From the NCBI GenBank assembly GCA_945877255.1, contig CAMCRE010000001.1:1-64000 (forward strand): DNA of 64,000 nt, read 5' to 3'. Below, piece by piece: positions 55,594 through 60,990 of this stretch. Positions within the stretch are counted from its first letter, which is position 1. Every line of letters begins with the position of its first letter. The notes beneath the pieces were generated by a model. That model had not been told where the DNA came from and did no database searches. It saw nothing but the letters and a program-made list of their open reading frames with translations. The DNA is from an uncultured Erysipelotrichaceae bacterium. Lineage in GTDB: Bacteria; Bacillota_I; Bacilli_A; Erysipelotrichales; Erysipelotrichaceae. Both the position numbers and the translations under genes were made by a program.

Positions 55594-56904
55594 ATGAAAA
55601 CAATAATAAAAAAAATGGGTATTAATGGGGAAGGAATTGGTTATATTGATCGTACGCCAGTTTTTATTCCACAAACATTAATTGATGAAGAAGTTGAATT
55701 TAAAGTTGTAAAAAAAGAAGCAAATTATCGTGTTGGAAAAGTTGAGAAAATATTGAAAAAAAATCCAAATCGTATTAATCCAATTAATAAACAAGAATAT
55801 TCGACGGGTGGATTTCCGTATATGATTTGTGAGTATGAAGAGCAAGTTAAATACAAAGAAGCTTATTTAAAAGAGAGTTTAATTAAATATGCCCAAATTA
55901 ATCCTAAATTAATTTCACCATTAATTAAGGCTGATAAAACGACTAAATATCGTAATCAATTAAAGCTTCCGTTTGCGAATGTTGAAGGAAAATTAGTTAC
56001 AGGGATGTATCAAGCGAATTCTAATTATTTTACAAAAATAGACATTAGTAGTATACATGAAGATGGTTTAGAGCGTATTCGAAAAAAAGTGGTATCAATT
56101 TTAAATGAAGAGAATTATTCTGCATATAATTTTAAAATTAAGAAAGGGATGCGTTCGTTAATTATTAGAGGTTTAGATAATCAGTATCAAATTTGTTTAG
56201 TTACGGGTGAAGATGAAATAAAGTTTTCAACAATTGAGAAAATCATGAATATCCCAAATGTTGTTTCACTTGCTCAAAGCATCAATACTGAAAAAAAATC
56301 TGTTGACTTATTCGGTAAGAAAGTACAAGTTTTAGCGGGTGATAAATATATGAAGTTTCTACTGAATGGTTATGAATTGAGTGTAAGTGTGCGCTCTTTT
56401 TTCCAGTTAAACACTTCTCAAGCTGAAAAATTATATCAAGTAGTAGAGCGATTCGTTCCTGCTAAAAATGATTTAATCGTTGAGTCGTATAGTGGAATTG
56501 GTGCGATCTCATTAATGGTAAGTCATAAGGCAAAAGAAGTAATTGGAATTGAAGAAATTAAAGATGCAGTAACAAACGCTAATTTGAATGCACATAACAA
56601 TCATTTACATAATATTTCGTTTTTATGTGCAGATGCTGCTGATAAATTATTGTATTTATCAAAAACAAAAAATATTGATACGTTAATTGTGGATCCGCCA
56701 CGCTCAGGTTTAGACGTTAATATGTTGGCGTGTATAATGAAAAGTAAAATTAAAAATATTGTATATGTTTCTTGTAATCCTGCAACATTGGCTAAAAATT
56801 TATCAATATTAAAAAATCGCTACGATGTTAAAGAGATTATACCGATTGATATGTTTCCACAAACACCACACGTGGAGTGTGTAGTACTGTTGGAAAGAAA
56901 ATAG
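55594..56904 (+). CDS. 23S rRNA (uracil-5)-methyltransferase, RlmCD/RumA type
   Basis: A 436-residue enzyme with an N-terminal TRAM domain (1-55) and a C-terminal methyltransferase. SYSGIGAISLMVS is the SAM site, IVDPPRSGLD and YVSCNPATLAKNL carry the catalytic motif and nucleophilic Cys. The Fe-S cysteines of RlmD are missing (STGGFPYMIC), as in Bacillus RlmCD. AAGGAG lies before the start. Confidence 0.92.
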   Translation: MKTIIKKMGINGEGIGYIDRTPVFIPQTLIDEEVEFKVVKKEANYRVGKVEKILKKNPNRINPINKQEYSTGGFPYMICEYEEQVKYKEAYLKESLIKYAQINPKLISPLIKADKTTKYRNQLKLPFANVEGKLVTGMYQANSNYFTKIDISSIHEDGLERIRKKVVSILNEENYSAYNFKIKKGMRSLIIRGLDNQYQICLVTGEDEIKFSTIEKIMNIPNVVSLAQSINTEKKSVDLFGKKVQVLAGDKYMKFLLNGYELSVSVRSFFQLNTSQAEKLYQVVERFVPAKNDLIVESYSGIGAISLMVSHKAKEVIGIEEIKDAVTNANLNAHNNHLHNISFLCADAADKLLYLSKTKNIDTLIVDPPRSGLDVNMLACIMKSKIKNIVYVSCNPATLAKNLSILKNRYDVKEIIPIDMFPQTPHVECVVLLERK

Positions 56905-56988
56905 GTAGGATACAGTAAATATTCTGATAAATAAAGGATTTCTGAGTGATAATTTAATATACAACCAAAAGATCTTAGAGATGAGTGA

Positions 56989-57678
56989 AGCATTGAGAGT
57001 CCAAGAGAAGATTTAACAGATGAAGCTGAAGATGCAATCATTACGACTATCAATGGATATAGAGTTGTTATCAGTAAATTTCCATCTCCTGTGCCAAATG
57101 AAGAGGCGGAAATTAATGCTTCTAATAATTATATGTGGAGGGAAGCGGTAGAAGTTACCAAAAGCCATAAGGCACATATTGTCGTTGCCGTTTTAGGTGA
57201 TGGAGAAGATATAAAAGAAAGAGGATTGATTTATACTGAGATTGTGTCAGCTTGCAGCATGCAGGAAAATGCCATAGGCGTATTTACAAGCGGGGTGGTC
57301 TTTGAACCAAATTATTATATCGACTCCGCTCAAATGATTAAAGAACAGGCATTGCCTATTTTTAACTGGATATGGTTCGGTCTTTATCAAACTGACAAGG
57401 GAATATCCGCATACACTTATGGAATGGACGTGTTTGGAAAGCATGAACTTGAGATAATAGATGCAGATGAAATTCCGGGGAAGCTAATGGAGTTTATATC
57501 TTCAATCGTATCATACATACTCCTTACGGATGCAGATTTGCAGGATGGTGAGACCATAGTGCTTTCAAAGAAAGACAAGCATAAAATTACATTAAGCACA
57601 GGTATTGCTCTTCCGGAGCAAGATACATTGAAAATTGCTCATGAAGCGGAAACAAAGAAATCTTGGTGGAGGAAATAG
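56989..57678 (+). pseudogene. DUF4261-domain protein, 5'-truncated
   Basis: The frame opens after a TGA at 56986-56988 and reads LTDEAEDAIITTINGYRVVISKF ... MWREAVEVTKSHKAHIVVAVLGDG, resembling DUF4261 proteins often found near polymorphic toxins. The first possible start (GTG 57091) has no ribosome binding site and would lose conserved sequence. In another frame, ATG AGT GAA GCA TTG before 57000 looks like the missing end, so a frameshift is likely. Codons are less AT-biased than the host genes, suggesting transfer. Confidence 0.65.
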
Positions 57679-57687
57679 AGAAACAAT

Positions 57688-57927
57688 ATGGACGGAGTAT
57701 TTGAATTTTTAAAAGCACATTATCAATATGTGTTGATAGCAGGCGGACTATTATTTTTAATAGGTGCGATAAGAGACTGGAAATGGGTATATCAAGCAAC
57801 ATCAGGAAATAAAGCAAGGCATGCCTTTATCTTTGAAGTGTGGGGCGAGAAAGGATATAGAGTTTTCATAGGAATATGCGGACTTATACTTGCGATTTGC
57901 GGTGTTGTGCTTTTAATATTAGGGTAA
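57688..57927 (+). CDS. Imm17-like small membrane protein
   Basis: A 79-residue protein with two helices (about 12-28 and 58-77) around a charged loop ATSGNKARHAFIFEVWGEKGYRVF. It resembles immunity protein 17 of polymorphic toxin systems. It is 9 nt downstream of the DUF4261 frame. Composition is GC-richer than surroundings. No cognate toxin gene is seen. Confidence 0.6.
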   Translation: MDGVFEFLKAHYQYVLIAGGLLFLIGAIRDWKWVYQATSGNKARHAFIFEVWGEKGYRVFIGICGLILAICGVVLLILG

Positions 57928-57946
57928 ACTCAAAGGAGGAGCAACT

Positions 57947-57994
57947 GTGATATCATTTATTGAATTGATAAATGATAAGATTAAAGCGGTGTAG
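57947..57994 (+). pseudogene. Truncated ORF after the Imm17-like gene
   Basis: AAAGGAGG (57932-57939) precedes a GTG that reads MISFIELINDKIKAV and stops. The IS3-type end begins 19 nt later. The good site with a short product indicates the first codons of a third immunity or toxin-island gene cut off by a rearrangement. Confidence 0.5.
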
Positions 57995-58013
57995 ATAGTG
58001 TCTATAAATCTGG

Positions 58014-58081
58014 GGGTATACTAAAATGGACAGAAAATTTAAGGAGTGTGGTAAAATAAGATAAAGGAATTAGTAGGAGGA
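58014..58081 (+). mobile_element. IS3-type left end, copy 2
   Basis: GGGTATACTAAAATGGACAG to AGTAGGAGGA, identical to the minus-strand sequence at 23753-23686 over 68 bp except for one base. Here no orfA follows; the sequence diverges immediately after the ribosome binding site. Confidence 0.75.
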
Positions 58082-58190
58082 TAAAAGATTACACAAGTTG
58101 GCTTACGATACTATTGGATATGAACAAGGTTTACATATACAATCGATATTATCGTAAAGATGTATATACTAACAAAGGAAGAAATTTGAA

Positions 58191-58501
58191 ATGAAGTTAG
58201 TATTATCAAACAATTATGTAGAATTAGAATAAGAAGAAATGATACACATAGATGGCAGGTGGGATCGCGATTAACAGGTCAAAATTTAATTAAGCTTGGT
58301 ACTTCTATTTGGGCTGGATATCTACTTGTGCAGGCTGGAAAAATTATGTTAGCAAATGCGAATATTGGGTTCTGGGGAGTTGTTGCTAAAGTTGGATATG
58401 CTGCAAAAACTGCGTTTATGTTATTTCCTTTATGGGCTAAGATAGCTGTTGGTGTAGGTGTTTCAGCAACTATATGGGCATTAGAAATTTGGGAGTTTTA
58501 A
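58191..58501 (+). pseudogene. Decayed double-glycine-leader bacteriocin precursor
   Basis: The frame at ATG 58191 (AAGGAAG upstream) reads MKLVLSNNYVELE, a TAA at 58230, then EEMIHIDGRWDRD: a double-glycine leader with the final Gly changed to Arg. Removing one missing base near 58269-58271 joins it to the frame starting about 58271, LTGQNLIKLGTSIWAGYLLVQAG ... ALEIWEF, a very hydrophobic ~80-residue mature part. Thus one nonsense codon, one -1 frameshift and one processing-site change are needed to explain it. A GTG at 58259 also opens this frame, without a clear site. The exact class is unknown. Confidence 0.6.
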
Positions 58502-58502
58502 A

Positions 58503-58652
58503 GTGTTTAAAAAGAATATTGGTTTTTTGATATTTGGAATATTGTTAATGTCTGTATTTGTATACAGATTAGGGACAGTAGAGTTATCTAGAATAGAGTT
58601 GGTATTATATGTGGTAATTGCATTATTGATTATTTTTTGGAAAAAAACATAA
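58503..58652 (+). CDS. Small membrane protein, putative bacteriocin immunity
   Basis: A 49-residue protein (start GTG 58503) beginning MFKKNIGFLIFGILL, with two predicted membrane helices and a basic tail FWKKT. GGGAG at 58491-58495 is 7 nt upstream, inside the bacteriocin end. No family match is recognised. Adjacency to the bacteriocin relic and size suggest immunity. Confidence 0.5.
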   Translation: MFKKNIGFLIFGILLMSVFVYRLGTVELSRIELVLYVVIALLIIFWKKT

Positions 58653-58742
58653 TTATTGTACTCTTCTATTAAAAGAAGTATATAAAATTTAATAATTATA
58701 ATTACATATATTCTTATTTGTGGTATTATGTATAACAAAAAA

Positions 58743-58777
58743 CTTATCTAGGCAGAAATGCTTGGATAGGTTTTTTT
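58743..58777 (+). terminator. Terminator of the bacteriocin-immunity unit
   Basis: TATCTAGGCA (58745-58754), GAAA tetraloop, TGCTTGGATA (58759-58768), then TTTTTTT (58771-58777). A full 10-bp stem. Confidence 0.9.
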
Positions 58778-58867
58778 AATTTTTCAAAAATAAAAAAAAC
58801 GTCCTATTTTATCCTGTCCCACGGTAACAAGTAGAGGGATAACAAAATCATCTAGAAAGGAGAACCT

Positions 58868-58975
58868 ATGAAACACAATTTAAAAGTCAGTGTTTCAAAA
58901 AATCCTAACAAGGATAGTATTCTACAATGTCGCAAAGTAACTATGAGAGAAAAAATAATACAGTTTTTATGTTAA
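58868..58975 (+). pseudogene. Truncated small ORF of mobile-element type
   Basis: AAAGGAG (58857-58863) precedes a 35-codon frame MKHNLKVSVSKNPNKDS ... REKIIQFLC. The opening resembles short proteins encoded in Bacillota integrative elements, which normally continue beyond the REKI segment. Here it stops early. Function unknown. Confidence 0.45.
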
Positions 58976-58989
58976 TATTAAAATAAAAG

Positions 58990-59031
58990 TACTCAAAAAA
59001 AGGAAAATAAAAATACCCCTTGAGTATTTTT
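58990..59031. terminator. Weak long-loop hairpin
   Basis: TACTCAA (58990-58996) pairs with TTGAGTA (59020-59026) across 23 nt, followed by TTTTT. It may end the small-ORF transcript. Confidence 0.35.
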
Positions 59032-59077
59032 AAAAATATGATAGCATAAATCTTTCGTGAAATCTTTTTATACCAAA

Positions 59078-59113
59078 AAATGTCGCAGTATGATTTTTCA
59101 GACTGCGACATTT
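59078..59113 (-). terminator. Terminator of the toxin-antitoxin operon
   Basis: Plus strand AAATGTCGCAGT (59078-59089) and ACTGCGACATTT (59102-59113) form a 12-bp stem; on the minus strand it is followed by a T-run (ATTTTTTGG). Confidence 0.88.
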
Positions 59114-59129
59114 GATTTTGTAATTTACG

Positions 59130-59447
59130 CTATTTTAGAAATTCATCAATATTTCGTTTTGAATAGAGTAGTCTTCGTACTTCCATCGTGTCATCAAGCA
59201 CAACATAAAATATGGAAAAATTTCTTACATTGATTCTATAGTATGGATGCTCACGCAATTTTGATGTTTGATAAAGTGCAAATGCCAATGGGGACGCTAA
59301 TCTTTTTAGAATAGCAAGTTCAATATCATTAACAAGACGGTGTGCAGCACTTGGATTTTTTAGTGCGTTTGTAATGTAGTCTGTAATAAATGTTAAATTT
59401 TGCTCAAATAGTGGTAAAAAAGACAGCTTATAAATTTGATGATTCAT
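59130..59447 (-). CDS. ParE/RelE-family toxin
   Basis: A 105-residue toxin of the RelE/ParE fold: YKLSFLPLFEQNLTFITDYI, then REHPYYRINVRNFSIFYVVLDD and VRRLLYSKRNIDEFL. Target (gyrase or ribosome) cannot be decided. It overlaps the antitoxin by 20 nt, with the antitoxin first. Confidence 0.88.
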   Translation of the reverse strand: MNHQIYKLSFLPLFEQNLTFITDYITNALKNPSAAHRLVNDIELAILKRLASPLAFALYQTSKLREHPYYRINVRNFSIFYVVLDDTMEVRRLLYSKRNIDEFLK

Positions 59448-59700
59448 CTATCCTAGTCCTTACTTTATTAAAGAGTTGATCTTTAGAAAGTCTGGTGTTA
59501 GATGATTTCGCCAAGTTATCTGCTTCATCAAGTTTTCTTTCAACATCATCAGTTAGAGCGGCGTAGTGTTCAATACTTAAAATAACCATCGTGCCATATC
59601 CATTTTTAGTTAGAAAGACTGGTGCGTTTGAATTAATAACTGTTTCTTCGATTTCAGGGAATTTATTTCTCAAATCAGAAACTGGTCGAATGTTTATCAT
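59428..59700 (-). CDS. Phd/YefM-family antitoxin
   Basis: A 90-residue antitoxin starting MINIRPVSDLRNKFPEIEETV, with FLTKNGYGTMVILSIEHYAAL, the Phd/YefM DNA-binding domain; the C-terminal half binds the toxin. GAGGAGG precedes the ATG. Confidence 0.9.
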   Translation of the reverse strand: MINIRPVSDLRNKFPEIEETVINSNAPVFLTKNGYGTMVILSIEHYAALTDDVERKLDEADNLAKSSNTRLSKDQLFNKVRTRIDESSNL

Positions 59701-59724
59701 GTGAATACCTCCTCTATTATCAAC

Positions 59725-59753
59725 ATTATATCATAATTTTATCTTAATTTCGA
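59725..59753 (-). promoter_or_regulatory. Promoter of the toxin-antitoxin operon
   Basis: On the minus strand, TCGAAA (59753-59748) and TATAAT (59730-59725) are 17 nt apart, upstream of GAGGAGG. The rest of 59754-60200 holds no supported gene; a CCAGAA/TTCTGG hairpin with T-run sits at about 60007-60066. Confidence 0.6.
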
Positions 59754-60261
59754 TTTTGTATGAGATAGGGGAACGAAACGCAAAAAAAACAGGGATAAAC
59801 GATGAAGCAATATAAAATTGAACGGATCGGTAACAGGGCAACAATAGCAATGCAAATATGTATTTTATAAAAAAGATGTAGTTTAAAATGTTGCCACCAA
59901 AATCAAAGTGACCGTATTCACGCTCAAATTGTTTCATCAGGTTACATTACCCGATGGTATACAAACAACGCAACAAAAAATTATGCCTTAAAAAAGTTGG
60001 TTGCTTCCAGAACATACCCTCTTAAACTGATGCATTTATGGCTAGTTTCTGGAGGTCTGTTTTTTATTTAGTTGTTAATAGAGAATTGAAAATGATAGAA
60101 ATTGTAGATAACAGTACTACAAAAGTAATTTTCCATTTAATAATAAGCAATATCATTTTTCATTAATAAAAATTCACTACACTTAATTATAAAAATAGTA
60201 AAAAATGTATATTTATGGTATATTATTGGTAATGAAAAAATGTGAGTTAAGGAGTATGTGT

Positions 60262-60990
60262 ATGGAAAAGAGAAGTAGAATTTCACGTTATAAAGAATTA
60301 CGTGACACAATGTTGGAAACTAAAATTGATAGTGAAGACGTATTAGAAGTAAATATCGAAGATTTAGAAAATGAAAAAACATATCAACCATCAAGAGAAA
60401 AAGTGCAAATTGTGCCTGAATTTATTATTGATGATTTTCATAATGAATACTTAGATGAATTTATTAAAGAAGTAAAAGAATACAACATTCGTAAAGGAAA
60501 TGCTTTTTCTGAAGATACACAGCTTAATGTACTTCAAGAACTAAAAAACAAAGATGATTTAAGAACACCATATATTGAAGAAATTGATGAGTTTGAAGAA
60601 ATTAATTACTTTGATGATATTTCAAAACAAGTAGCAGCATTATTAAATGAAACACCAGTAGAAAAAACAGAAGAAGTACCGACGGAAACACCACAAGTCG
60701 TAGAAAATATTGTTGAAGAAGTTCCACATCAAGAAGAAGTTCCTGTTATTGAAGAAAAAGTGAATGCACCATCAGAAAATAGTGTTCAAAAAATAGAACA
60801 AGAAGATTTATTAGAAGAAACACGAAAAATTAATTTAAAAATTGAAGAGTACAAACAAAATGTAGAAACAATCACAACAAACGTGAGTAAAGCGAACACG
60901 ATTTTAAATGTAGTAATCGTTATTTTAATTATTTTTATTTTAATTATTATTGGATTAGCGGTTTGGTTTGTGTTGATGGTGAATAAATAA
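60262..60990 (+). CDS. Acidic tail-anchored membrane protein of unknown function
   Basis: A 242-residue protein: basic first 15 residues, a long acidic cytoplasmic region with a Pro-Glu-Val rich stretch (about 135-185), a coiled coil (about 190-215) and a single C-terminal helix (about 216-238). ATG 60262 is chosen since AAGGAG (60249-60254) is 7 nt upstream. It overlaps cmk (TAATG). It may be envelope or division related; I do not recognise it. Confidence 0.7.
   Translation: MEKRSRISRYKELRDTMLETKIDSEDVLEVNIEDLENEKTYQPSREKVQIVPEFIIDDFHNEYLDEFIKEVKEYNIRKGNAFSEDTQLNVLQELKNKDDLRTPYIEEIDEFEEINYFDDISKQVAALLNETPVEKTEEVPTETPQVVENIVEEVPHQEEVPVIEEKVNAPSENSVQKIEQEDLLEETRKINLKIEEYKQNVETITTNVSKANTILNVVIVILIIFILIIIGLAVWFVLMVNK

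What the first reader, a model, noticed from the sequence alone, without database searches (positions are those of the whole stretch)
58191..58652. Decayed double-glycine bacteriocin with intact putative immunity gene
The leader MKLVLSNNYVELE(stop)EEMIHIDG(R) is typical of double-glycine peptides but has a stop and a lost second glycine. A one-base shift at about 58270 restores a hydrophobic 80-residue mature part. A 49-residue two-helix membrane protein with a good ribosome binding site follows directly, then a strong terminator. The family of the mature peptide is not recognised, so this could be an undescribed bacteriocin class. Retained immunity with lost toxin fits a 'cheater' strain.
Basis: partly seen in the sequence, partly recalled or inferred. 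Interest (0 to 1): 0.75.

Follow-up and report, generated by a model that had tools for sequence, protein, structure and literature searches.

The report
Dead bacteriocin gene beside kept immunity
A small bacterium carries the wreck of a gene for an exported killer peptide next to an intact gene that probably protects against that peptide; working copies of the pair exist in other bacteria, so this is a genuine but mostly ordinary case of a weapon lost and a shield kept.

Summary
At 58191-58501 lies a broken double-glycine (GG) peptide gene: a leader with an in-frame TAA, a lost second glycine (G to R) and a frame break between leader and mature part. A 49-residue membrane ORF follows at 58503-58652. 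Homology settles what it is. Intact precursors with full GG leaders occur in Helcococcus massiliensis, Proteiniclasticum ruminis and Erysipelothrix urinaevulpis, each followed by a 48-57 residue protein homologous to the window's 49-mer (shuffle z 5-7.5; z 14 to a Streptococcus suis homologue). The Helcococcus copy sits in a complete cluster (RNPP/Rgg-type regulator, C39-peptidase ABC exporter, HlyD protein), the anatomy of the pneumococcal rtg locus, and the leaders carry the rtg-type proline at -18. The window's genome has no C39 exporter and holds a second decayed locus with retained membrane ORFs. Across the family, the four genomes with broken leaders of this type lack C39; the five with intact ones have it (p = 0.008, post hoc). 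Further orphan copies of the immunity family occur in three other loci. So: an rtg-type GG peptide cassette with dead toxin and exporter and surviving cognate immunity. Killing, protection and 'cheating' are inferred; rtg peptides themselves have no proven function.

The parts
58191..58259 (+). Leader region of the broken GG precursor: MKLVLSNNYVELE*EEMIHIDGR; TAA at 58230-58232, second glycine replaced by R at 58257-58259
   Evidence: leader profile match E 2.2e-15; aligned with intact leaders MELVLPQNYVEIEQEEMMYLDGG
58260..58501 (+). Mature (cargo) part of the precursor, open in another reading frame than the leader; about 77 residues with NIGFWG-VAK-G-AAKTAF---PLWAKIA motif; stop at 58499-58501
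   Evidence: shuffle z 13-14 to Helcococcus and Proteiniclasticum, 8.8 to E. urinaevulpis, 12 to E. tonsillarum
58503..58652 (+). 49-residue membrane protein, putative cognate immunity protein (motif VYRLG...E...LYVVIAL)
   Evidence: homologous to the ORFs that directly follow the intact toxins (z 4.8-7.5), to an orphan in S. suis (z 14, 44% identity), not to immunity candidates of other GG peptides (z about 0)
58737..58776 (+). Terminator-like stem-loop with T run
   Evidence: 1 found, 1.0 expected in shuffles
57688..57927 (+). Neighbour: Imm17 family protein (Pfam PF15562), orphan immunity-type gene; context, not part of the cassette
   Evidence: E 4e-13
57001..57678 (+). Neighbour: DUF4261 protein, 5' end missing (no start codon between the upstream stop and GTG 57091); context

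Best explanation
The locus is a decayed toxin-immunity cassette of the rtg type. The ancestral gene made a precursor of about 103 residues. Its 23-residue double-glycine leader would have been recognised by a C39-peptidase ABC exporter (PCAT), cut after Gly-Gly and exported, releasing a hydrophobic peptide of roughly 77-80 residues predicted to be helical, most likely a membrane-active bacteriocin. The directly following gene makes a small two-helix membrane protein that protects the producer. In this Erysipelotrichaceae genome the exporter is gone and the precursor is dead three times over (stop in the leader, cleavage-site glycine lost, frame broken), while the immunity ORF is intact and by inference still protects the cell from producers of the same peptide family. 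Shown: the lesions, the homology of both genes to intact cognate pairs, the absence of a C39 exporter, and recurrent orphan copies of the immunity family. Inferred: killing, protection, and that protection is what keeps the ORF.
For: Intact homologous precursor plus homologous downstream ORF in three organisms. Helcococcus cluster with RNPP regulator, PCAT with Peptidase_C39 E 1e-27 and HlyD. No C39 domain in the window's genome even at E 10; the Helcococcus PCAT finds only ABC proteins whose matches start beyond its peptidase domain. Second decayed locus in the same genome, C4:42.5-43.7 kb. Broken leaders in 4 genomes without C39, intact ones in 5 with it, Fisher p 0.008. Orphan immunity copies: S. 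suis L074:8308-8472, Proteiniclasticum L069:7780-7953 after a toxin-tail remnant, G586 with no toxin. Pneumococci without RtgAB still keep rtg GG peptide and immunity-like genes (PMC7018657).
Against: No bactericidal activity is proven for any peptide of this leader type; the authors of the rtg paper only speculate that they are bacteriocins. The 49-aa ORF is short and could simply not yet be broken. No other strain or species of the genus is held, so selection on the ORF cannot be tested. The 4-versus-5 association was noticed after the search and several of those genomes are Erysipelothrix.
Confidence: 0.6

Rival explanations
1. Both genes are passive wreckage of a horizontally acquired cassette; the 49-aa ORF is open only because decay is recent or the target is short, and it protects nothing.
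For: The neighbourhood is itself a graveyard: DUF4261 lacks its 5' end, other small fragments lie between rlmD and 60205, and the genome is reduced (1.26 Mb). Own locus C4 also mixes broken and open frames.
Against: Orphan copies of the same immunity family recur in unrelated hosts (S. suis, Proteiniclasticum, G586), more than passive decay of one locus would predict. Membrane ORFs of 60 and 111 aa also survive beside the second broken toxin.
Confidence: 0.25
2. The peptide was not a bacteriocin but a secreted GG signalling or colonisation peptide, and the 49-mer has another membrane role.
For: The function of rtg GG peptides is unknown; some GG peptides are pheromones or act in biofilms (PMC7595303).
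Against: Length (about 80 residues) and hydrophobicity fit membrane-active bacteriocins rather than pheromones; a specific, co-inherited membrane ORF follows three of the intact copies; several different GG peptides with different membrane ORFs sit in one cluster.
Confidence: 0.1
3. The hydrophobic frame is still translated from an internal start (GTG 58259 here, ATG in E. tonsillarum) as a leaderless or intracellular peptide.
For: In the window and in G407 (E. tonsillarum) all lesions fall in the leader and its junction while the mature frame stays open. The cleavage-site glycine is lost in three of three broken loci that reach it: R, R, C.
Against: No good ribosome binding site at GTG 58259; the mature part of the second own locus is itself cut to a fragment; GGN codons are prime targets of A+T-biased mutation.
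Confidence: 0.05

Closest known systems
rtg locus of Streptococcus pneumoniae: GG peptides RtgC/G/T/W exported by the PCAT RtgAB under Rgg regulator RtgR (PMC7018657)
   Same: 23-residue leader with proline at -18 and hydrophobic residues at -15, -12, -7, -4; intact relatives sit with an RNPP/Rgg-type regulator, a C39 PCAT and an HlyD protein; small immunity-like ORFs follow the peptide genes; loss of the exporter with retained peptide and immunity-like genes is common in pneumococcus
   Different: Here regulator, exporter and accessory genes are all gone, the peptide gene is dead, and the host is an Erysipelotrichaceae. Rtg peptide letters were not available for a direct sequence comparison
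Class II bacteriocins with double-glycine leader, Pfam Bacteriocin_IIc (PF10439) and the blp pneumocins
   Same: GG leader, hydrophobic Gly/Ala-rich cargo, cognate small membrane immunity protein downstream
   Different: Intact homologues reach PF10439 only at E 0.02-0.2, below the curated cut-off; cargo and immunity families are unnamed
blpA-disrupted 'cheater' pneumococci (PMC4739721, citing Son et al. 2011)
   Same: Weapon export lost, immunity retained
   Different: There the peptide genes and regulation persist and immunity induction by competitors was shown experimentally; here the peptide gene itself is broken and nothing was tested
Erysipelothrix urinaevulpis (L066) and E. tonsillarum (L086) loci
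   Same: Homologous cargo peptides; the E. urinaevulpis immunity ORF is homologous to the window's 49-mer
   Different: E. urinaevulpis is intact with three C39 matches; E. tonsillarum has a broken leader, DGC at the cleavage site, no C39 and a different downstream ORF

Membership tests
Double-glycine (PCAT substrate) peptides | Leader with hydrophobic residues at -15, -12, -7, -4 | tested here: met
   Y, L, M, I at these positions in the window leader
Double-glycine (PCAT substrate) peptides | Gly-Gly (or Gly-Ala/Gly-Ser) before the cut | tested here: not met
   Window has Gly-Arg; intact homologues have Gly-Gly. The window gene is a broken descendant, not a working member
Double-glycine (PCAT substrate) peptides | C39-peptidase ABC exporter in the genome | tested here: not met
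   No PF03412 match in G000 up to E 10; present near intact homologues
rtg-type GG peptide cassette | N-terminal leader motif in the -22 to -18 region with P at -18 | tested here: inconclusive
   Intact relatives have E-L/M-V-L/M-P with P at -18; the window has KLVLS, with P changed to S; no Rtg letters available for direct comparison
rtg-type GG peptide cassette | Rgg/RNPP regulator, PCAT and accessory protein with the peptide genes | tested here: inconclusive
   Met for Helcococcus L067; none seen among the ORFs around the window locus
Bacteriocin immunity protein (cognate) | Directly downstream of the toxin and homologous to the ORF downstream of intact homologous toxins | tested here: met
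Bacteriocin immunity protein (cognate) | Protects cells from the peptide | not testable with these tools
   Needs an experiment
Bacteriocin | Kills or inhibits other bacteria | not testable with these tools
   No activity known even for intact homologues
Pfam Bacteriocin_IIc PF10439 | Score above the curated cut-off (27.1 bits) | tested here: not met
   Window mature part: no match. Intact homologues: 12-15 bits

The most novel reading that the evidence does not exclude
In lineages that lost the C39 exporter, the cargo peptide is kept and re-used from an internal start as a leaderless or intracellular peptide. The leader is taken apart specifically (cleavage-site glycine lost in three of three broken loci that reach it) while the hydrophobic frame stays open.
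Probability: 0.05. Interest if true: 0.6.

Novelty: new member of a known kind. Interest (0 to 1): 0.4.

Why it matters
It adds an unnamed cargo-peptide family and its cognate small immunity family, both absent from Pfam, NCBIfam and PHROGs and now traced through Helcococcus, Proteiniclasticum, Erysipelothrix and (immunity only) S. suis, to the little-understood rtg-type GG peptides, whose function is an open question. The recurrent orphan immunity genes, and the match between loss of the C39 exporter and decay of the leader, give a testable case of weapon loss with shield retention.

Tried and rejected
Mature 80-mer alone against genome contigs, viral contigs, plasmids and phages: no relatives; the Helcococcus precursor or its profile against plasmids, phages and viral contigs: none. 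PDB: no meaningful match. A DNA hit at G000:C1:147377 to the end of the 49-mer gene is an A+T-rich chance match in an intergenic stretch before another gene. AlphaFold: one long helix from a single sequence (pLDDT 85, pTM 0.40) and three helices with a five-row alignment (pLDDT 65, pTM 0.39); both too weak for a fold search, but agree on all-helical. Holin or phage origin: no PHROG match for the 80-mer. The shared position beside an rlmD-type gene in G586 is not synteny: upstream genes differ and identity is about 30%. Sequencing error: rejected as the whole explanation, because three separate lesions here plus a second decayed locus would be needed. DNA of the whole patch 56850-60300 against plasmids: no match.

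Full report
What is there. The leader-like reading frame starts at ATG 58191 after an AAAGGAAG ribosome binding site and reads MKLVLSNNYVELE, TAA (58230-58232), EEMIHIDG, R. The hydrophobic part is open in a different frame up to 58501. A 49-codon ORF follows at 58503-58652, then a terminator-like hairpin at 58737-58776. Neither product has a significant match in Pfam, NCBIfam or PHROGs. Open-frame length alone is weak evidence: 36 of 1000 shuffles do as well. The case therefore depends on relatives.

Relatives of the toxin. The mature frame alone finds nothing in named collections. Leader and mature part read together, with X at the stop, hit Erysipelothrix tonsillarum (G407/L011/L086) at E 8.9e-13. 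The profile of the two then hit E. urinaevulpis (G571/L020/L066), an intact precursor MELVMPMNYELLKQEEMMYLDGGWSAYTV..., and a second locus in the window's own genome. A scan of 84,980 species with three sequences brought intact precursors from Helcococcus massiliensis and Proteiniclasticum ruminis, 104 residues each, 83% identical to each other, with the same GFW...VAK...AK.AF..LP.WAK motif as the window, plus many other GG peptides with the same leader in Streptococcus, Enterococcus and others. Against shuffled sequences the window's mature part scores z 13-14 with Helcococcus and Proteiniclasticum, 12 with E. tonsillarum and 8.8 with E. urinaevulpis.

Relatives of the immunity ORF. Directly behind the intact toxins lie ORFs of 53 (Helcococcus), 48 (Proteiniclasticum) and 57 (E. 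urinaevulpis) residues that share YRLG/WRLG...E...(L/F) with the window's 49-mer. Shuffle z values are 5.0, 7.5 and 4.8; a 55-residue S. suis protein gives 14.2 (44% identity). Immunity candidates of other GG peptides in the same family of bacteria give about 0. So toxin remnant and 49-mer come from the same cognate pair.

The export machinery. The Helcococcus locus holds an RNPP-type regulator, a 741-aa ABC protein with a Peptidase_C39 domain, an HlyD protein and three further GG peptide ORFs of this leader type. The uncultured Eubacterium (L039) and G005 loci also have C39-ABC and HlyD genes beside GG peptides of this leader. This is the anatomy of the pneumococcal rtg locus; its exporter RtgAB recognises a motif at -22 to -18 including P(-18) (PMC7018657), and the intact leaders here have P at -18. 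The letters of Rtg peptides were not found in the paper library, so membership by sequence was not tested. The window's genome has no C39 domain, and the Helcococcus exporter finds only ABC proteins without the peptidase part there.

Decay as a pattern. In the family, broken leaders of this type are found in G000 (two loci), G407, G444 and G456, none with a C39 match above cut-off; intact GG leaders are in G452, G005, G567, G571 and G048, all with one (G048 only a partial match). Fisher exact p = 0.008. This was seen after the fact and some genomes are related. The second own locus (C4, about 42.5-43.7 kb) has a leader with a frame break and DGR, a C-terminal toxin fragment homologous to E. 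tonsillarum's, a third leader stump ending MESLVIP-stop, and open membrane ORFs of 60 and 111 residues.

Orphan immunity. Homologues of the 49-mer without a working adjacent toxin occur in G586, S. suis L074:8308-8472 and Proteiniclasticum L069:7780-7953, where a toxin-tail remnant precedes it. This recurrence is the best indirect evidence that the immunity gene is worth keeping alone. A comparable pattern is reported for pneumococcal rtg loci without RtgAB (PMC7018657) and for blpA-broken strains (PMC4739721).

Setting. Between rlmD (55594-56904) and 60205 lies a patch that includes a 5'-truncated DUF4261 gene, an Imm17 gene and a ParE/Phd-type toxin-antitoxin pair; the DUF4261-Imm17 part reaches 38% G+C against about 30% around it, consistent with acquired DNA. 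Imm17 is another immunity-type gene without its toxin in sight.

Confidence. That this is a dead GG peptide gene with its cognate downstream partner: about 0.95. That the lost peptide was a bacteriocin and the partner its immunity protein: about 0.85. That the immunity gene is still functional and kept for that reason: about 0.6; the main rival is passive wreckage.

Verdict. It is a dead member of a known kind (rtg-type GG peptide) with an unnamed cargo family, beside its surviving cognate immunity gene. Killing, protection and cheating remain inference.

Noticed in passing
G000 contig C4 42500-43700 (L036:6548-7681): Second decayed GG peptide locus in the window's genome: frame-broken leader with DGR, toxin C-terminal fragment, third leader stump, and open membrane ORFs of 60 and 111 residues.
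   Followed up: yes
window 57001-57927: 5'-truncated DUF4261 gene followed by an intact Imm17 gene with no polymorphic toxin nearby, at raised G+C: a second, unrelated orphan immunity-type gene 0.6 kb upstream.
   Followed up: partly
window 58257-58259; L036:7681-7610; L011:1525-1550: The cleavage-site glycine is lost in all three broken loci whose leader reaches it (R, R, C), and in two of them it is the only changed conserved leader residue apart from the indels. Could be A+T-biased mutation or early selected inactivation; unexplained.
   Followed up: partly
window 58230-58232 and G444:C1:59069-59107: Two genomes carry a TAA at the same leader codon (after VELE), where intact relatives often have Q or E; probably coincident C-to-T or G-to-T changes.
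   Followed up: partly
G586:C114:11196-11339 (L100): Orphan immunity homologue just downstream of an rlmD-type methyltransferase gene, as in the window, but in different upstream context; may mark an insertion-prone site.
   Followed up: partly
L011/L018 (Erysipelothrix tonsillarum): The broken GG peptide there is followed by a multi-pass membrane ORF and a 210-aa membrane protein with an HEIAH motif (metalloprotease-like), with IS3-type transposase genes nearby.
   Followed up: no
window 58868-58975: 35-codon ORF MKHNLKVSVSKNPNKDSILQC... with a good ribosome binding site; recalls small mobile-element proteins but matches no family.
   Followed up: partly
window 59130-59700, minus strand: ParE-type toxin and Phd/YefM-type antitoxin pair directly after the cassette.
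   Followed up: no
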